From NCBI RefSeq assembly GCF_000969835.1, contig NZ_KQ033912.1:716620-780619 (forward strand): DNA of 64,000 nt, in the 5' to 3' direction. A program made the position numbers and the translations under genes. The notes beneath the pieces were generated by a model that was not told the origin of the DNA, did no database searches, and worked only from the letters and a program-made list of their open reading frames with translations. The DNA is from Parabacteroides goldsteinii DSM 19448 = WAL 12034 (GTDB lineage: Bacteria; Bacteroidota; Bacteroidia; Bacteroidales; Tannerellaceae). The stretch's first letter is position 1; the number at the start of each line of letters is the position of its first letter. This document shows positions 5,781-59,097 of this stretch, one piece after another.

Positions 5781-6119
5781 GGTATTCCTTATTATATTCT
5801 ATCTCTTGAAATTTCAGGGCAACCGCACCAAATTGTTTGAAAAGCCAACAGCAAAGACTTTTGGAGATCCGAAAAGCCCTCGTTTTTAGAAAAATCTATC
5901 TCCCAATGGAGTTTTATAAATTTACTTTCACCTTTCACCATCTATAACATATTATAAAGCAGGTAATTGCAGTGAAGGAAGAGTGAGGGGGTGAAAAAAC
6001 GGAGATGTTTGTCACGAGCATCATACCAGTTTAGGAGGGATGAGTTCCTGGCTATCCAGGCGAGAATATATTGCACGATTACGAAAGAAAGGAGTGGAAA
6101 ATATGCATTTCCCCACTTT

Positions 6120-6206
6120 TCCCATGCCTATGGGGATTTTTCCCCACAGACATGGGGAATATGCCCCACCAGTATGGGGAAAAGTCCCCACTATGGTGGG
6201 GAAATC
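6120..6206. repeat. 22-bp-period array A with alternating CCCCA and TGGGGA boxes
   Basis: TGGGGA starts at 6131, 6153, 6175 and 6197, exactly 22 bp apart. CCCCA starts at 6142, 6164 and 6186 (with a TCCCA at 6120), also 22 bp apart and offset by 11 bp. The boxes are reverse complements, so one alternates with the other once per helical turn. The filler between boxes differs in every unit. It shares the 22-bp step, not the sequence, with arrays at 29989, 40850 and 54333. Confidence 0.8.
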
Positions 6207-29988: not shown

Positions 29989-30142
29989 AGTAACGGGAAA
30001 GTAGTTCATAAGTCACGGTCTTTTAACTGATAAGTCCTAAACTTTTATTCTTTTGAGCATGCCTTAATTTAATTTTCAGCTAGCTAAAAATAGATTTCGA
30101 CCATGCTAAAAATCAATTCCGAGCATGCTCAAAAGTAAAAAA
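29989..30142. repeat. 22-bp-period array B with GCATGC-type boxes
   Basis: Seven consecutive 22-bp units start at 29989, 30011, 30033, 30055, 30077, 30099 and 30121. The last four begin GAGCATGC, CAGCTAGC, GACCATGC, GAGCATGC followed by AT-rich filler (TAAAAAT in two of them). The first three begin AGTAACGG, AGTCACGG, AGTCCTAA and are weaker. The array sits between the GH30 gene end and the groES promoter. The GH30 terminator overlaps its last unit. This region (29790-30202) holds no gene. Confidence 0.75.
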
Positions 30143-40824: not shown

Positions 40825-40849
40825 TAGAAAAATTTAAAATTAGAATAAC

Positions 40850-40959
40850 TGCGGCAGCTATCTCGAATGGTTGCCGCAGTCGTTTTATATAATTGCAGCA
40901 CCTGTTTTTTACCACTGCGGCAGCTATTTCTTACAATTGCCGCAACCATTTTCCCGGTA
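40850..40959. repeat. 22-bp-period array C with TGCSGCA boxes
   Basis: TGCGGCA (40850), TGCCGCA (40872), TGCAGCA (40894), TGCGGCA (40916) and TGCCGCA (40938) are spaced exactly 22 bp apart. A weaker TACCGCC at 40960 keeps the phase. Filler is T-rich and different per unit, though units 1 and 4 share GCTAT. The first two boxes form an ACTGCGGCA/TGCCGCAGT hairpin that may terminate the toxin mRNA. Array D at 54333 has the same box. The rest of 40825-41013 shows nothing else. Confidence 0.85.
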
Positions 40960-52821: not shown

Positions 52822-52920
52822 CTACTGCTTCTTCCTCCCCAACAGGAACCCCAGCAACTCCATGATAAACTGGAGGATGGTTCTTACCTTGTTGCCACTG
52901 CCATTTTCTTTCTCACTCAT
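52822..52920 (-). CDS. Smalltalk-like 32-residue protein
   Basis: A tiny frame from ATG 52920 to TAG at 52822: a polar start (MSEKENGSGNK), a hydrophobic helix (TILQFIMELLGFLLG) and a basic tail RKKQ. It overlaps the end of the GH73 gene by 8 bp. Size, one helix and position after an HU-like and a cell-wall hydrolase gene match the 'smalltalk' family of Bacteroidales. It could be a holin-like or membrane-signalling peptide; function is not known. Confidence 0.7.
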   Translation of the reverse strand: MSEKENGSGNKVRTILQFIMELLGFLLGRKKQ

Positions 52921-53386
52921 ACGCTTTATTATTTAAGTTATACACTATGGGGACCAGCGACCGTGCAATGCTTTCCAGCATGTTGCAATACGCCTCGCGG
53001 TTATCCCCGTTTACTTCACTGATATATTTGCTGTAGGCCATCTCGCGGGCATAAGCCCGGGGATAGTTGCTGACGGCGGCCGCCTGTTTGTAGGCGGTGG
53101 CGATCAGGCGGGCAAAATCGAGAAAACTGTTCTCCGCCCGGTCGTAACGGCGGAACACAAGGCCGCCGGGATTATCCAGGTCCGTCTTTCCCCCGTGCCA
53201 GTAAGCGTTGGAAACGCCATAGCCGGTCAGCCCGAAGAAATTATTGTAGCACGTAGCCAGGCGGCTCTCTCCCCACCCGCTTTCGATAGCAGCCTGCGCC
53301 AGGATGACTACCGGGTTCAGGCCGTACAACTCACCCGCCATACGGGCGGCGGGGAGGTACTTTGTTGTAAACGATTGCTTATCCAT
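52913..53386 (-). CDS. GH73-type glucosaminidase (peptidoglycan hydrolase)
   Basis: A 157-residue FlgJ/lysozyme-like N-acetylglucosaminidase. NPVVILAQAAIESGWGESRL carries the catalytic Glu, followed by CYNNFFGLTGYG, FRRYDRAENSFLDFARLI and YAREMAYSKYISEVNGD. No signal peptide is present, as in phage-type lysins that need a holin. It sits between an HU-like gene and the smalltalk gene, in the slot where other Bacteroidales carry an amidase. Confidence 0.9.
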   Translation of the reverse strand: MDKQSFTTKYLPAARMAGELYGLNPVVILAQAAIESGWGESRLATCYNNFFGLTGYGVSNAYWHGGKTDLDNPGGLVFRRYDRAENSFLDFARLIATAYKQAAAVSNYPRAYAREMAYSKYISEVNGDNREAYCNMLESIARSLVPIVYNLNNKAYE

Positions 53387-53407: not shown

Positions 53408-53866
53408 TTACTCGATTTCGGGGCGGTCGCTACCACCACCGCCTTCCGGCGGAGTTGAAGGTTTCGCCTCCTCCAGCTTGAAACGCTCCCCCTTCGTAGT
53501 CTGGGTCAGGTTACGAAGTTTGGCGCCGGGACGGAAACGGAGACGGGCGCGGTACAACAAATTGGTTGAGAAATCATCGGTCGTAACACTTCCCGAACTG
53601 GTCTGGATCAGCTGGAACGTCCCCAGGTCGCCACACTGGACCACTTCCCCACGCCCCAGAAACATCAGAAGGAACCGGATCACACGGTCGATCACCACCT
53701 TCACATCCCCACTCGAAGCGGTCGAACTCTCCGCCACCGCATCACACAACTCATCAAACGTGCAGGTCCCCGTCGCACGCGTCTGGGCATAATAGAGCTT
53801 CTCTTTCCCTGCTTCCACATTTTTACTGAGGTTCTTCCGGAGAACCAAATGATACTGTACTGCCAT
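53408..53866 (-). CDS. HU-like DNA-binding protein (HU-CCDC81 type)
   Basis: A 152-residue Bacteroidales-type HU homologue. VQYHLVLRKNLSKNVEAGKEKLYYAQ opens with a strand and helix; DVKVVIDRVIRFLLMFLGRGE is the dimer helix; GDLGTFQLIQ the strand before the DNA arm; FRPGAKLRNLTQTTKGERF the arm end. The acidic, Pro-rich tail is not in canonical HU (about 90 residues). First gene of HU-GH73-smalltalk with a good -7 box. Confidence 0.9.
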   Translation of the reverse strand: MAVQYHLVLRKNLSKNVEAGKEKLYYAQTRATGTCTFDELCDAVAESSTASSGDVKVVIDRVIRFLLMFLGRGEVVQCGDLGTFQLIQTSSGSVTTDDFSTNLLYRARLRFRPGAKLRNLTQTTKGERFKLEEAKPSTPPEGGGGSDRPEIE

Positions 53867-54091: not shown

Positions 54092-54316
54092 ATGGAACAA
54101 ACGACCTTCACGATACGGGCCTACGGAGTAGGCGAACTGGCGGCACTCTACAGCCCTCACCTCAGCCGCAGGGGAGCGATCCTGCAACTTTGGCGGTGGA
54201 TCAATTATCATGGCGTACTGAAAGCCAAACTGGTTGAACTGGGGTATCATCCCGGAGTCAGGAGTTTCACACCCCGCCAGGTGGAATGTATCGTCGAACA
54301 TTTAGGGGAACCCTGA
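54092..54316 (+). CDS. DUF4248 family protein of the VirE-like module
   Basis: A 74-residue basic protein. YGVGELAALYSPHLSRRGAI looks like a helix-turn-helix start, followed by LQLWRWINYHGVL and FTPRQVECIVEHLG. It matches DUF4248, a family seen beside VirE-like genes in Bacteroidales. The predicted role is DNA binding or recruiting the VirE-like ATPase; unproven. It is divergent to the HU operon and convergent with the VirE-like gene, with array D and a 26-bp inverted repeat in the gap. Confidence 0.85.
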   Translation: MEQTTFTIRAYGVGELAALYSPHLSRRGAILQLWRWINYHGVLKAKLVELGYHPGVRSFTPRQVECIVEHLGEP

Positions 54317-54332: not shown

Positions 54333-54464
54333 TGACGCAATCATCCCAAAGGACTGCGGCAGTTTTTTTCAGAGACTGCCGCAACTGTTTCCAGAGACTG
54401 CGGCAGTCGTTTTATGTCGTTGCGGCACCCCCTGAAAAAAACTGCCGCAGCCAGTGGAGAAAGA
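54333..54464. repeat. 22-bp-period array D with TGCSGCA boxes
   Basis: Boxes start at 54333 (TGACGCA, weak), 54355 (TGCGGCA), 54377 (TGCCGCA), 54399 (TGCGGCA), 54421 (TGCGGCA) and 54443 (TGCCGCA), exactly 22 bp apart six times. The filler is different in each unit; AGAGAC occurs before two boxes. TGCGGCAGTCGTTTTAT here matches TGCCGCAGTCGTTTTAT in array C except for one base. The array begins 17 bp after the DUF4248 stop. Confidence 0.85.
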
Positions 54465-54470
54465 AAGGGC

Positions 54471-54610
54471 GGGGGCAGAAAGGGCAGACAAAAAGGCATT
54501 TTTGAAAACTTTATAATAAGATGTCACTTGTTACTTCTATGAATGTTTCGTAGAAGTAACACCGTACAGAAGTTTTTCAAAACACCTTTTTGTCTGCCCT
54601 TTCTGCCCCC
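54471..54610. repeat. 140-bp element with 26-bp perfect terminal inverted repeats
   Basis: The arm 54471-54496 is the exact reverse complement of 54585-54610. Nested inside are GAAAACTT/AAGTTTTTC and TGTTACTTCT (54529-54538) with AGAAGTAACA (54552-54561). The whole folds into one long hairpin or cruciform. It ends 6 bp before the stop codon of the VirE-like gene. It may act as a terminator, a MITE, or the substrate of the module. Confidence 0.85.
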
Positions 54611-54616
54611 GATCAG

Positions 54617-56731
54617 TTAAAACGGAAGCTGCGGGTCGGGGCGTCCACCACCGTCATCCTCCTTATTATCACCACCTTCGCCCTCATCCGAAGGATCATA
54701 GCCAAATCCTTTGCGACGCGCTTCCACCTGGTCATTACTCAATTCCATGACGGCATACAGCCGCTTTCCATGTCTCTTTTGTGACTCGAATTCACCGCTT
54801 TTTAACACTCTGCCCAGCAAATTAACACTCATTGTAGTCATGGAATAGCGTGTTCGTTCCGCTATTTTAGACAGGATTTCGCTTGCAGAGAGCAAGAGGG
54901 GCAGCTCGAAACGGACCGGCTTGCGGAAATAGGTATAAAACAATTCCGCTTCGGGGCACGATTGCTGGAAAGGCTCGTTGTTGTCGTTTATTTCCGTTAT
55001 GTCATTTTCGGCAAACCAATAACGGAAATTCTGTTTGTAGAGCGCCAGCGCCTGGGCATAGATGGCGGCATGGTCTATTTCAGAAGTATAATCGATCCGG
55101 AGCGTTTCGAAACAAAGGAAACGGCGCGACCCGGTGCGATCTGTCAGAATCTGGCTGTCGTTTACCGTGGCGGCAAACGAAGCACGGCGCACGAACGTCT
55201 CCGCATTACGGGCATACGGGCGGCGTTCGAGGATAGAATCTTTTGTGATCAGGGCCTTCAACTGGTTCAACTCCACGCGGCTCTGTCCCGACAGTTCATC
55301 GAGGATGATCAGGAAGCAATCGCTCATCAACAACGACGAATCTTTTGCCGTAGGATCGAGGTTGCCGGAGAAGACATAGTTTCTAAGCACGGGCGGCACC
55401 AGGTTGCGCAGCCAGGTGGTCTTCCCCAACCCCTGTGCACCGCTCAGCAACAAGACCGTATGATTGGTCTGCCGCTCGTCGATGGCACAGGCTACGACTG
55501 CCACCAGCCATTTCTTCAGGCATTTCTCCCAATACTCGGGGTGGGTAGTGTCGATTGTGGCTGCCAGGCGGCCGATAGGGTCCGTCGTCCCGTCCCAGCG
55601 CGGCAGGTTATCGAAGTAAGACTTGAAAGGATTGTACTCGGGACTGAAATCGGAATAGATCACCGAACGCAGGTCGGACACGCGGCAAAACACGCCCGAT
55701 TTCTGCAATGCACACCAGACGGAATTCTCCCAATAATCGGTGACCGGTTGAAAGGCATCGTGTTTCTTCAGGTCCCGGTATTCAACCGTACGTCTGACGA
55801 TATTGCGACGAAGTTTGTAATATTTCGTCAGAAACTCCTGTATCTGATTGACAAAACTGTCTCCGCGCTGCAAACGGAACGCCGGCTTCTCCGTAGCATA
55901 TTGTTCGGTATGCGCATAAGCACTGTCGATTGCCTGTCGGCGTTCCTCGACCGGCAGGTCGTCAAATGATTTTGCGGCATAGGCTTCGACCTCCTCTCTG
56001 GCAACCCCGAAGCGGTTGCAGTAGCCGGCAAAAAGGTGCACGTAATTGTTGCGGTTGCCCTCGGCATAAGGGAACTTGCGGCTGGCCTTTCTACGGGCGG
56101 AAGAGATCAGTTGTGACACAGTCTTTCCGCCTATGGCTTCTATCGGCGGCAGATCGGCGGGCAAAGTGCCTTCCCCTTTCAGCCAGGGTTCGAAACGGGG
56201 AGAGAGATAGAGCTGCTGATCGTACGACATGATGCAGAGCCGTCCGGCATCGCTGCCCGAAGTGTCCGCCCCGACACCCAGCAGGCGTTCGTACCAGTCT
56301 TTCACCAGCTTGTAGACAGCGAGATGGTTTGCGGGGATCAGTTCGGTCCCGACAGCCGGATAGACAATGATCTTGATGCCCCGTCCGCGCGGGCTGATCC
56401 AGCAGGCCACCGTATAGACGGCTTCGCGCACCAGGGCAAGCAGGCGCGGCAAGTCTTCTTTGTTCAATTCATCGAAATCGAGGATGGTAAGCGGATTGTA
56501 GCCTGTCATATATTTCGGCAACCGTTGTTTCTGATAGGTAGCGGATACGGTTATGGCAGGCAGCTTTTTCTTCTGCATGTCGGCTTCATCCTGATTTCCG
56601 GCGTCCATAAAGGCGCGGATACGGTTAATTTCGGTGGCATACTTGCCATTGCGGATGTCGTAAAGGGCGTCGATCAGGGGAATATCCCCCATACATCTCT
56701 TAAATCCGGCGAATAAGGTTACGTTTATCAT
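54617..56731 (-). CDS. VirE-like primase-helicase family ATPase (BT4734/BF3469-like)
   Basis: A 704-residue protein. The N-terminal third (SATYQKQRLPKYM, LDFDELNKEDLP, CWISPRGRGIKIIVYP) is the BT4734/VirE-N domain, similar to primase-polymerase folds. The C-terminal half has Walker A GAQGLGKTTWL (about 430), Walker B-like CFLIILDELSG, sensor FAATVNDSQILTDRTGSRRF, as in phage/plasmid VirE superfamily-3-like helicases. The tail is acidic. It lies 108 bp after a small coiled-coil gene. I infer DNA replication or processing of an integrated element; host function unknown. Confidence 0.88.
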   Translation of the reverse strand: MINVTLFAGFKRCMGDIPLIDALYDIRNGKYATEINRIRAFMDAGNQDEADMQKKKLPAITVSATYQKQRLPKYMTGYNPLTILDFDELNKEDLPRLLALVREAVYTVACWISPRGRGIKIIVYPAVGTELIPANHLAVYKLVKDWYERLLGVGADTSGSDAGRLCIMSYDQQLYLSPRFEPWLKGEGTLPADLPPIEAIGGKTVSQLISSARRKASRKFPYAEGNRNNYVHLFAGYCNRFGVAREEVEAYAAKSFDDLPVEERRQAIDSAYAHTEQYATEKPAFRLQRGDSFVNQIQEFLTKYYKLRRNIVRRTVEYRDLKKHDAFQPVTDYWENSVWCALQKSGVFCRVSDLRSVIYSDFSPEYNPFKSYFDNLPRWDGTTDPIGRLAATIDTTHPEYWEKCLKKWLVAVVACAIDERQTNHTVLLLSGAQGLGKTTWLRNLVPPVLRNYVFSGNLDPTAKDSSLLMSDCFLIILDELSGQSRVELNQLKALITKDSILERRPYARNAETFVRRASFAATVNDSQILTDRTGSRRFLCFETLRIDYTSEIDHAAIYAQALALYKQNFRYWFAENDITEINDNNEPFQQSCPEAELFYTYFRKPVRFELPLLLSASEILSKIAERTRYSMTTMSVNLLGRVLKSGEFESQKRHGKRLYAVMELSNDQVEARRKGFGYDPSDEGEGGDNKEDDGGGRPDPQLPF

Positions 56732-57222: not shown

Positions 57223-57294
57223 CATATGAATTTAATTTATAATAAAAGAATCTCTAATGATTCAGAGGTTTGAATGTTCAGTCATTATCAGTTT

Positions 57295-57354
57295 TGAGCT
57301 ATCTAATTATCGACCGGTTGTAACTGCCTCCCCTCTTGAGAGGGGGAAGGGGGT
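57295..57354 (+). repeat. Left 60-bp inverted repeat flanking the IS110 element
   Basis: This 60-bp segment matches the reverse complement of 58982-59041 at 54 of 60 positions. It starts GAGCTATCT and includes GGTTGTAACTG and the hairpin word CTCCCCTCTTGAGAGGGG. Confidence 0.9.
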
Positions 57355-57407
57355 GTGTTATATTCCAGCCTATACAACCTCCATAATCAGAGTTACTTAA
57401 CTATTGT

Positions 57408-57570
57408 AGGTTCATTTGCCGTTTGCTTCAGCTGACGGTTTACAAGTTGTTTCTCTCTTTTGGCTTCAGCCACATTTCTCTTAGATAGAAAACTGTAAGA
57501 AATGGGACTAAAGTCCAATGAAATAGACCCTTTACTAATCCGTCAGCTGAAGCAGACGGCAAATAAACCT
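57408..57570. repeat. 31-bp inverted repeat element upstream of the transposase
   Basis: The arm 57408-57438 matches the reverse complement of 57540-57570 at 29 of 31 positions (core TTTGCCGTnTGCTTCAGCTG). Between the arms lie TGGCTTCAGCCA (57460-57471) and GGGACTAAAGTCC (57504-57516), themselves palindromic. It looks like a short non-coding palindromic repeat of the Bacteroidota type. Confidence 0.85.
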
Positions 57571-57648
57571 GTAACAAGGCTTGTTTTATTGACTGGCTTT
57601 AACACATTTACATTTGCAGTATTAAATATCCTAATAAAAATATAAGTG

Positions 57649-57656
57649 TATATTTG
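57649..57656 (+). promoter_or_regulatory. -7 box of the bridge RNA candidate
   Basis: TATATTTG, a perfect TAnnTTTG match, with transcription expected to begin at about 57660, exactly at the first hairpin. No -33 TTG at the ideal distance. Confidence 0.55.
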
Positions 57657-57659
57657 AAA

Positions 57660-57800
57660 AGAAGAGTTGCAGTGAACTAACTTTGACACTAGTCTTAAAT
57701 GACTATGGGCTGAATCAGACTGCAACTCTCTTAATTGGAGAACCTAGCCAGTTAGAATTGTAGGCTCACGACCTAATAAATGTATTAGCTGTTTCTCCTT
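57660..57800 (+). ncRNA. Probable bridge RNA of the IS110-family element
   Basis: Two large-loop hairpins lie in the 170 bp before the transposase. The first has an 11-bp perfect stem, AGAGTTGCAGT (57663-57673) with ACTGCAACTCT (57719-57729), around a 45-nt internal loop. The second has GGAGAA (57737-57742) with TTCTCC (57793-57798), and an inner CTAATA/TATTAG hairpin (57773-57788). Two stem-loops with big internal loops upstream of the recombinase is the layout of IS621-type bridge RNAs, whose loops pair with target and donor DNA. Confidence 0.65.
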
Positions 57801-57827
57801 CATGTTTAATACTGTAAATACAAAGTT

Positions 57828-58823
57828 ATGAATTATTCTCATTTTGTAGGTCTTGATGTAGGGAAAAAAACTTTCGATGCATCCTTAATGTCTGCGGACG
57901 AAAAAGAGTTGTCTCACAAGTCTTTTGATAACACTTCAGAAGGGATCCAATCTTTATTAGATTGGATAGCAGGTTATCATCTCTCTTTATCCAAACTCTT
58001 GTTCTGTGCTGAAAACATGGGAAGTTATGTCACAGAGTTATCTGTTTCCAGTGCCTCTATGGGTTTTTCCCTAGCTTTGGTTTGCCCGTTGACCATCAAG
58101 AAGTCCATAGGCTTGCAACGAGGCAAAAATGACCGCATTGACGCTAAAAGAATAGCGAACTATGCGGTATTACACTATCGAAAACTAGAGTTATACAAAT
58201 TGCCTGACAAAGACTTGGTGAGACTGCGGGGATGGATTATTATACGTGACAATTTGGTCAAGCAAAAAGTATCAAGCATAAAGTTATTGGAAACATTCTC
58301 CCAGATGGCCAAGTTGGCTGATGTGACAGACTCCATTTCTTTTTTGGAAGAGCAGCTCAAGTCGATAAAAGAAAAGATCCTGCAGGTGGAAGAGGCTATG
58401 GAGCAACTAATAGCCGCTAGTTGTTCTCTTTGCACAAACTACTTGTTATTAAGAAGTATAAAAGGTGTAGGGATAATCAATGCCATTGTATTACTGTGTG
58501 TTACTAACAATTTTCAAAGATTTGACAACCCAAGGAAGTTTGCTTGTTATTGCGGGGTTGCTCCCTTTGAACATACTTCAGGTATTTCCATACGGGGAAA
58601 AACGCAGACTTCTCCATTGGCTAACAAAGAAGTAAAAGTGTACCTTACCCGGGCAGCTATTACTGCCATCTCTTGGGATCCGCAGATGAAAGCATATTAT
58701 AAAAGGAAAATAGCGGAGGGGAAACATAAAGCATCTGTAATCAATGCTGTAAGAGCCAAAATCATAGCAAGGTCTTTTGCTGTGATACGAAGACAGACTC
58801 CATTTGTAACATTAGTCGTATAA
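57828..58823 (+). mobile_element. IS110-family transposase
   Basis: A 331-residue DEDD recombinase. RuvC-like domain: D10 (VGLDVGKKTF), E62 (FCAENMG), D102 and D105 (NDRIDAKRIA). C-terminal Tnp domain: LLRSIKGVGIINAIVLL, FACYCGVAPFEHTSGISIRG with the expected catalytic Ser251, and ARSFAVIRR. Positions agree with the IS621 catalytic set. The protein is complete, so the element may be active. IS110 elements have no long terminal repeats of their own; the 60-bp repeats outside belong to the surrounding DNA or a composite. Confidence 0.95.
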
Positions 58824-58903
58824 TAAAAAGGCCCTTAATTTCGAAAACATCTTAGATTTAGGAAGTAGCTATACACTTCTGAAGAGTAATTATGTCTATA
58901 TAC

Positions 58904-58947
58904 GAACTTACCCAAGGATACGTTAATGTTCGTAAACTTGGGTAAGA
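58904..58947 (+). other. Imperfect hairpin after the transposase, probable right part of the IS
   Basis: GAACTTACCCAAGG pairs with CTTGGGTAAG across a short spacer holding CGTTAATGTTCGT. It probably lies in the non-coding right end of the IS. Exact IS ends cannot be set without an empty site. Confidence 0.5.
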
Positions 58948-58981
58948 TTTTATAGATATTGTTTGGAGAGGACTTAGAATT

Positions 58982-59041
58982 CACCCCCTACCCCCTCTCA
59001 AGAGGGGAGCCAGTTACAACCAGTCAATAAACAGATAGCTC
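58982..59041 (-). repeat. Right 60-bp inverted repeat flanking the IS110 element
   Basis: Reverse-complement partner of 57295-57354 with six mismatches. It contains CCCCTCTCAAGAGGGG, a self-complementary word. Confidence 0.9.
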
Positions 59042-59058
59042 AATCATTTCTAAATACG

Positions 59059-59097
59059 AAACCCCGGAAAGACGAATCCCCCGGGGTTTGTTTTGTC
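59059..59097. terminator. Terminator-like hairpin right of the IS region
   Basis: AAACCCCGG (59059-59067) pairs with CCGGGGTTT (59081-59089), followed by GTTTTG on the plus strand. It would stop transcription leaving the IS region. Confidence 0.6.

What the first reader, a model, noticed from the sequence alone, without database searches (positions are those of the whole stretch)
54333..54464. Six TGCSGCA boxes at exact 22-bp steps beside the VirE-like module (array D)
Counted in the sequence: boxes start at 54333 (one mismatch), 54355, 54377, 54399, 54421 and 54443. Box is self-complementary, filler is different in each unit, step is constant at two helical turns. Conservation of spacing without conservation of sequence suggests selection on geometry, such as a phased protein-binding array or single-strand hairpin series. 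Three more arrays with the same step occur in this window.
Basis: partly seen in the sequence, partly recalled or inferred. Interest (0 to 1): 0.85.

Follow-up and report, generated by a model that had tools for sequence, protein, structure and literature searches.

The report
Evenly spaced palindrome arrays in Bacteroidales
Between the genes of this gut bacterium and its relatives lie many short rows of mirror-image DNA words whose letters differ from row to row but whose step is nearly always 22 (or 23) bases, which looks like a docking rail kept for its spacing; what docks there, if anything, is unknown.

Summary
Array D has six TGCSGCA boxes exactly 22 bp apart (first box one mismatch). 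In 300 shuffles of the window's intergenic DNA the longest comparable chain was 3; the real window has two of 5. Arrays A, B and C share the step.

A lag scan that assumes no period finds 22 bp (23 islands) and 23 bp (9) in 75.6 kb of Parabacteroides gordonii intergenic DNA, and no other lag above 2 except their doubles; none in the other phyla sampled. Sequence families differ and turn over; the step stays. At related loci boxes persist while fillers diverge. In family B, core columns change far less than the rest (6 of 308 versus 46 of 308). Unit number changes by whole units. G.U and A.C mismatches are balanced, so no RNA signature.

Best reading: phased duplex-DNA sites, one dimer per palindrome (0.45; protein unknown). 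Main rival: a BrickBuilt/REP-like palindromic minisatellite without host function. The VirE-like module is a neighbour, not the cause.

The parts
54333..54464 (.). Array D: six boxes (54333 TGACGCA, 54355, 54377, 54399, 54421, 54443) at exactly 22-bp steps
54470..54611 (.). Long inverted repeat directly after array D: perfect 27-bp arms 54470-54496 and 54585-54611; similar repeats lie next to TGCSGCA arrays at other loci
40848..40957 (.). Array C: five boxes of the same family (third one TGCAGCA), step 22
30049..30136 (.). Array B: four units related to the 22-bp palindrome AATTTTGAGCWWGCTCAAAATT; dispersed family in Parabacteroides
6107..6205 (.). Array A: TGGGG..CCCCA palindromes, step 22
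54092..54316 (+). DUF4248 gene (PF14053); 16 bases lie between its end and array D
54617..56731 (-). VapE/VirE-like protein (PF05272, BT4734-like_N PF08800), convergent with the DUF4248 gene
53408..53866 (-). HU-HIG DNA-binding protein (PF18291) of the same module
52913..53386 (-). Glucosaminidase-domain protein (PF01832) of the same module

Best explanation
Array D is one of a large class of Bacteroidales intergenic arrays built from tandem units of 22 bp (less often 23 bp), most of them palindromic, so that half-units alternate in orientation about every 11 bp; the whole array also tends to be a long imperfect palindrome. Shown here: the near-constant step, several unrelated sequence families with the same step, dyads beyond chance, mismatches balanced as in duplex DNA, conserved cores with free fillers in the two families examined, unit number changing by whole units. 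Inferred: each palindrome is the site of a DNA-binding dimer, and neighbouring dimers sit two turns apart on one face of underwound DNA, so that spacing is under selection while linker letters are not. Binding specificity changes between lineages, giving new families on the same geometry. The likely effect is architectural, or on chromosome or transcription boundaries, rather than on promoters, since in co-directional gaps of Parabacteroides the arrays lean towards the upstream stop codon.
For: Lag spectrum of intergenic DNA, P. gordonii: 22:23, 23:9; other lags 12-60 at most 2 except 44 (13) and 46 (8); shuffles 0.0 at 22 and 23; other phyla 0 at 22 and 23. Whole-genome pairs of TGCSGCA at any step from 12 to 42 in P. 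gordonii and G002: 25 of 46 at 22, 13 at 23, 8 spread over seven other steps. D orthologues and a paralogue: 26 boxes in five loci at 22-bp steps, 150 of 156 fixed box letters kept, fillers 43% identical on average. Family B: 12 loci, 48 units, 36 of 36 steps 22, both central bases A or T in 48 of 48 units; columns ranked on the other loci, 6 of 308 differences in core columns against 46 of 308, p 2.6e-9. Dyads: best-dyad pairing 0.645 against 0.517 when unit columns are permuted, 55 Parabacteroides arrays, p 1e-9. Sense-strand G.U 101 versus A.C 106 in local dyads, 113 versus 120 in mirrored pairs. Co-directional gaps, Parabacteroides sets: 16 of 20 arrays nearer the upstream stop, p 0.012; 16 of 19 if array D, wrongly classed there, is left out.
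Against: No binding protein was identified, and several palindrome families in one genome would need several proteins or a protein reading shape. Two turns of relaxed B-DNA are 21 bp and no 21-bp island was seen in P. gordonii; that DNA in cells behaves as about 11 bp per turn is recalled, not tested. The TGCSGCA box itself occurs at both 22 and 23 bp, and one G002 array has a 24-bp step between two 22-bp steps. Dyads are not strong in every array: 39 of 55 Parabacteroides arrays and 18 of 31 P. conceptionensis arrays are reached by at most 2 of 40 permutations. No gene-orientation class is enriched (chi-square p 0.58 Parabacteroides sets, 0.22 all), and in P. conceptionensis the lean to the stop codon is absent (11 of 19, p 0.65). 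Mirror symmetry about the array centre is not predicted by simple dimer packing. Family B copies were found by DNA similarity to array B, and D loci by similarity to the D region, which favours conserved copies. In one Prevotella-group genome (G003) reversed-pattern pairs outnumber real ones, 59 versus 11.
Confidence: 0.45

Rival explanations
1. Palindromic minisatellite or MITE/REP-like non-coding DNA (BrickBuilt-like) without host function. Arrays spread and grow by unit duplication; template switching at quasi-palindromes keeps the arms complementary; the 22/23-bp unit reflects the copying machinery.
For: Dispersed families (array B has five further places in P. gordonii among 40 of 61 candidates scored); whole-unit copy change 1 versus 4 and 2 versus 4; mirror symmetry about the array centre, 0.630 versus 0.547 paired, 62 of 86 arrays testable, p 7e-6; balanced mismatches; no gene-orientation bias and no recurrent neighbour gene; presence or absence between species.
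Against: Core columns of B conserved far beyond the other columns; box letters of D kept while fillers diverge; four units in 12 of 12 B loci. No single transposase: Y1_Tnp was not found in 4 of 8 array-bearing genomes (one of the four, G002, is a MAG). Almost no unit length other than 22/23 in P. gordonii, which slippage alone does not predict.
Confidence: 0.33
2. RNA-level elements: tandem or long hairpins at transcript ends acting as terminators or stabilisers.
For: Arrays B, C and D fold as long hairpins and A as a set of shorter ones (D -67.7 and -74.7 kcal/mol on the two strands; no shuffle control was run); T-runs follow the boxes of array C and of the left part of D; lean to the upstream stop codon in Parabacteroides; palindromic candidate RNAs are reported in Bacteroidetes, 230 of 250 of all palindromic candidates predicted as terminators (PMC8040213, passages).
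Against: No G.U excess on the sense strand (101 versus 106 and 113 versus 120); 10 of 38 arrays of the Parabacteroides sets lie in divergent gaps by ORF-based calls; only one terminator-like site in the D region, shuffle mean 0.9; linker length need not be constant in an RNA hairpin series; T-left/A-right skew is seen over all contexts together.
Confidence: 0.17
3. Chance or low-complexity artefact.
For: The boxes are short and were noticed by eye; 8 of 31 P. conceptionensis arrays have weak dyads (score under 0.5) and look like simple repeats.
Against: Shuffles, lag scan that assumes no period, other-phyla controls, column permutations.
Confidence: 0.01

Closest known systems
BrickBuilt MITE/minisatellite of Porphyromonas gingivalis (PMC4596501; abstract, section 5, part 1 of section 7, and section 8 read)
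   Same: Bacteroidales, intergenic, tandem short units (23 nt), dyad symmetry giving long predicted stem-loops, copy number varying between strains, 19 dispersed copies in one strain.
   Different: BrickBuilt is one sequence family with leader, tail and IS5-type terminal repeats, reported there from P. gingivalis and P. gulae; here several unrelated families in and beyond one genus share the 22/23-bp step, and the BrickBuilt terminal repeat is not near array D.
REP/BIME elements (PMC3733652, abstract start and passages)
   Same: Extragenic palindromes, dispersed, sometimes in clusters.
   Different: No constant 22-bp step across unrelated sequences is described in the passages seen; a Y1 transposase was not found in 4 of 8 array-bearing genomes.
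Palindromic candidate structured RNAs of Bacteroidetes, e.g. HMP2_4205, HMP2_1032 (PMC8040213, passages)
   Same: Palindromic elements of 80-132 bp in Bacteroidetes, found on both strands.
   Different: Treated as RNA or terminators; the word 'tandem' has 0 occurrences in the main text and no common period is reported in the passages seen. Not compared by sequence here.
Plasmid iterons and centromere arrays (recalled, no call)
   Same: Protein-binding repeats at about two-turn spacing.
   Different: One family per replicon at an origin or centromere, usually not palindromic; here dispersed and chromosomal.

Membership tests
BrickBuilt | Tandem 23-nt unit | tested here: not met
   Array D and the other three window arrays are 22 bp; 9 of 32 islands at lag 22 or 23 in the P. 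gordonii sample are at 23.
BrickBuilt | Dyad symmetry with long stem-loops, intergenic | tested here: met
BrickBuilt | Terminal inverted repeat of the GAGACCTTTGCA type, with leader and tail | tested here: not met
   4 matches with 2 mismatches in the window, chance mean 4.86, none within 5 kb of array D. Leader and tail themselves were not searched.
REP/BIME | RAYT-type Y1 transposase in the genome | tested here: not met
   PF01797 found in 4 of 8 array-bearing genomes, not in G002, G012, G020, G006; RAYT subtype not examined, genome completeness not given.
REP/BIME | Short extragenic palindromes, dispersed | tested here: met
Intrinsic terminator | G+C hairpin followed by T-run in the transcript strand, beyond chance | tested here: inconclusive
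   One site at 54396-54408, shuffle mean 0.9.
RNA hairpin element | G.U favoured over A.C on the transcribed strand | tested here: not met
   101 versus 106 and 113 versus 120.
CRISPR array | Near-identical repeats separated by longer unique spacers | tested here: not met
   Unit of 22 bp with a short box whose flanks vary.
Protein-binding array | Specific protein bound | not testable with these tools
   No binding data.

The most novel reading that the evidence does not exclude
Bacteroidales chromosomes carry on the order of 40 arrays per megabase (extrapolated from 32 in 800 kb of P. gordonii) of a class defined by geometry, not sequence: tandem 22/23-bp palindromes read by a diversifying family of dimeric DNA-binding proteins, with lineage-specific codes replacing each other on a fixed two-turn rail. 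BrickBuilt of P. gingivalis would be one special case.
Probability: 0.3. Interest if true: 0.85.

Novelty: new variant of a known kind. Interest (0 to 1): 0.68.

Why it matters
A spacing kept while the letters change from family to family and lineage to lineage points to a general DNA-geometry rule in a dominant group of gut bacteria. If proteins read these arrays, they would be a new kind of chromosomal address system; if not, they show a mutational process with a fixed 22-bp stride. Either answer is testable in laboratory Bacteroides strains.

Tried and rejected
Local RNA hairpins per unit: pairing between half-units does not fall with distance, and there is no G.U excess. Order of units as proof of one global hairpin: permuting units gave only a weak, mixed signal; the central-dyad test was clearer and is post hoc. 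Terminator array: T-run orientation against gene direction was mixed (Parabacteroides co-directional 35 T-runs versus 18 A-runs on the sense strand, P. conceptionensis 33 versus 43). Linkage to convergent gene ends, suggested by 44 Bacteroidota pattern hits, did not hold in the sample that assumes no pattern. Phage origin: 15 stretches in the viral collection hold the three-box pattern; their contexts were not examined. Fall of direct identity with unit distance is partly built in by the detection rule and by array edges, so it is not used. Box spacing (27 of 30 neighbouring boxes within 80 bp at 22) is biased, since most of its loci were fetched by the 22-bp pattern or by similarity to D; the whole-genome count, which leaves the step open, replaces it. 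Rfam at gathering cut-offs: only a tRNA in the window. Literature: searches listed no paper on a 22-bp period in Bacteroidales intergenic DNA; that library lacks most subscription journals.

Rows dropped and known faults: islands with strong short-period self-match were removed (not); arrays with dyad score under 0.55 were left out of the G.U/A.C sums (a similar rule); 24 of 86 arrays could not enter the central-dyad test. Gene calls are ORF-based. Array D was wrongly classed as lying between two minus-strand genes (it is convergent); without it the sense counts are 97 versus 101 and 109 versus 117, and the stop-codon lean 16 of 19.

Full report
What is there. Array D (54333-54464) has six boxes at exactly 22-bp steps, the first with one mismatch. 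It begins 16 bases after the end of a DUF4248 gene and is followed by a long inverted repeat with perfect 27-bp arms (54470-54496, 54585-54611) before the convergent VapE/VirE-like gene. Tandem Repeats Finder gives five arrays in the window; the four intergenic ones all have period 22. Chains as long as those in C and D (five boxes) did not appear in 300 shuffles of the intergenic DNA, where the longest was 3.

How general it is. Pairs at this step exceed the reversed-pattern control in 7 of the first 8 array-bearing genomes (for example 84 versus 0 in Ca. Physcousia, 55 versus 1 in Hoylesella, 19 versus 0 in P. gordonii); the exception is G003, Hallella, with 11 versus 59. Ten further genomes, six of them from other phyla, had 3 to 10 pairs each and controls of 0 to 6, so single pairs are weak evidence; all these genomes were reached because they hold the pattern.

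Because those scans assume the step, I scanned intergenic DNA for any lag. In 800 kb of P. gordonii (75.6 kb intergenic) islands of at least 65% self-match over 40 bases occur at lag 22 (23) and 23 (9), at 44 (13) and 46 (8), and otherwise 0 to 2 per lag from 12 to 60; five shuffles of the first 400 kb gave 0.0 at 22 and 23. An unnamed genus-mate gave 3 at 22 and 1 at 33 besides 44. In Prevotella conceptionensis lag 22 leads (30), beside an 8-bp repeat family at 16, 24 and 32 (17, 12, 14); 8 of its 31 arrays have dyad scores under 0.5. Flanks of the Bacteroidales pattern hits with the hits masked gave 11 at 22, the next value apart from 44 being 3. Fifty loci of other phyla (42 kb intergenic) gave 0 at 22 and 23, as did the Paenibacillus, Nocardioides and Bacillus stretches; Bacteroides gave 2 and Pedobacter 1.

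Sequence is free, geometry much less so. By eye P. gordonii alone has about ten or more different palindromes, among them TGTTTCA..TGAAACA, GGTGTACACC, GATAATTATC with GCAAGCTTGC, GAGCWWGCTC, TGGGG..CCCC and TGCSGCA. With the step left open from 12 to 42, TGCSGCA pairs in the whole genomes of P. gordonii and G002 number 46: 25 at 22, 13 at 23, one each at 12, 21, 24, 25, 30 and 35, two at 27. The 23-bp pairs form arrays of their own (for example seven boxes at P. gordonii C1 4364087-4364231); one G002 array runs 22, 24, 22. The exact 22-bp pair is confined within the genus: 11 in P. gordonii, 14 in G002, 2 in G020, none in G044, single pairs in four others of 38 genomes. Around the D locus, arrays of 4 to 6 boxes with the step kept stand in P. 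gordonii (two copies of the module), G020 and G002; over these and the window 150 of 156 fixed box letters are kept, and fillers are 43% identical on average over all registers, best 61% (boxes with fewer than 4 of 6 letters were not counted). In a second G002 copy the array is there behind two inserted small genes; a third P. gordonii copy lacks it. Other module copies in the genus were not looked at.

Array B belongs to a dispersed family: 12 loci examined (at most seven independent ones), 48 units, 36 of 36 steps 22, consensus AATTTTGAGCWWGCTCAAAATT, central two bases A or T in every unit. With columns ranked on other loci only, orthologous copies differ at 6 of 308 core positions and 46 of 308 others, summed over seven comparisons that are not all independent; flanks differ by 2 to 22%. 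This is what binding sites look like and what a freely decaying palindrome does not.

Change in unit number. At one locus G020 has a single unit and G044 four, with the same flanks, a difference of 66 bp; at another G044 has two and P. gordonii four. Where the window has array C, the same gene gap in G044 holds an array of a different family and in G020 a single unit of it. Array B is present in P. gordonii and G044 and missing in G020, G009 and G021. P. gordonii carries a TGCSGCA array plus the long inverted repeat after the H+-pyrophosphatase gene where the window has neither.

DNA or RNA. The dyads are real as a group: best-dyad pairing is 0.645 against 0.517 after permuting unit columns in 55 Parabacteroides arrays (p 1e-9) and 0.572 against 0.469 in 31 P. 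conceptionensis arrays (p 3e-6), though 16 of 55 and 13 of 31 single arrays are matched by more than 2 of 40 permutations. B, C and D fold into long hairpins, A into several shorter ones. Pairing about the array centre is better than about other dyads (0.630 versus 0.547, 62 arrays, p 7e-6), with T-rich left and A-rich right halves (86 arrays, p 4e-4). But mismatches are balanced between G.U and A.C on the sense strand (101 versus 106; 113 versus 120; 97 versus 101 and 109 versus 117 without the misclassed array D), the mark of a duplex-level or mutational symmetry, not of an RNA. Gene context is neutral in orientation (p 0.58 Parabacteroides sets, 0.22 with P. conceptionensis), with a lean to the upstream stop codon in Parabacteroides (16 of 20; 16 of 19 without D) but not in P. 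conceptionensis (11 of 19). Neighbouring genes are a mixture: 57 proteins, 117 Pfam families, the commonest in 4.

Mechanism. The best-supported reading is a rail of duplex-DNA sites, one dimer per 22-bp palindrome. Near-constant spacing with free linkers, conserved cores and an A/T-only centre in family B speak for it; the lack of any known protein, the several families per genome, the coexistence of 22 and 23 bp, and the mirror symmetry speak against or are unexplained. That 22-23 bp is two turns at the roughly 11-11.5 bp per turn inferred for DNA inside bacteria is recalled, not tested. The chief rival is a palindromic minisatellite kept symmetric by template switching.

Known relatives. 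BrickBuilt of P. gingivalis (PMC4596501) is the nearest: 23-nt tandem units, dyad symmetry, long stem-loops, strain-variable copy number, but one sequence family with its own leader, tail and IS5-like ends. Palindromic candidate RNAs in Bacteroidetes (PMC8040213, passages) may include some of these elements. I found no report of a common 22-bp period in the order.

Noticed in passing
window 54470-54611; L144, L145, L173: A long hairpin with 27-bp perfect arms follows array D, and related hairpins stand beside TGCSGCA arrays at other Parabacteroides loci, once away from the VapE/VirE-like gene; array plus hairpin may move as one unit.
   Followed up: partly
L142:11415-11582, L233:7228-7330, G044 C7 about 888950-889040: Composite arrays in which units of one family are followed by units of another family in what looks like the same 22-bp register (read by eye).
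   Followed up: partly
G001 (P. gordonii) C1 573420-573564 and 4364087-4364231; G002 C189 10569-10621: Arrays with the same TGCSGCA box but a 23-bp step, a second geometry for one box.
   Followed up: no
window 57260-59060: IS110-type transposase (57828-58823) with inverted copies of short intergenic stretches on both sides, next to the VapE/VirE-like module.
   Followed up: no
L234-L248 (Prevotella conceptionensis): A second repeat class of 8-bp steps (lags 16, 24, 32; AACTCGTC-like) in intergenic DNA.
   Followed up: no
G003 (Hallella multisaccharivorax): The reversed control pattern is about five times more frequent than the real one (59 versus 11), so this genome probably has another repeat with a 22-bp step.
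   Followed up: no
L168:760-1520 (G002 C486): In one module copy of G002 two small genes, from recall like a DUF4160/DUF2442 pair, sit between the DUF4248 gene and the TGCSGCA array.
   Followed up: partly
L074:7161-7340: A run of 180 bases almost all G beside or inside a TGCSGCA array region of this MAG contig, possibly an assembly artefact.
   Followed up: no
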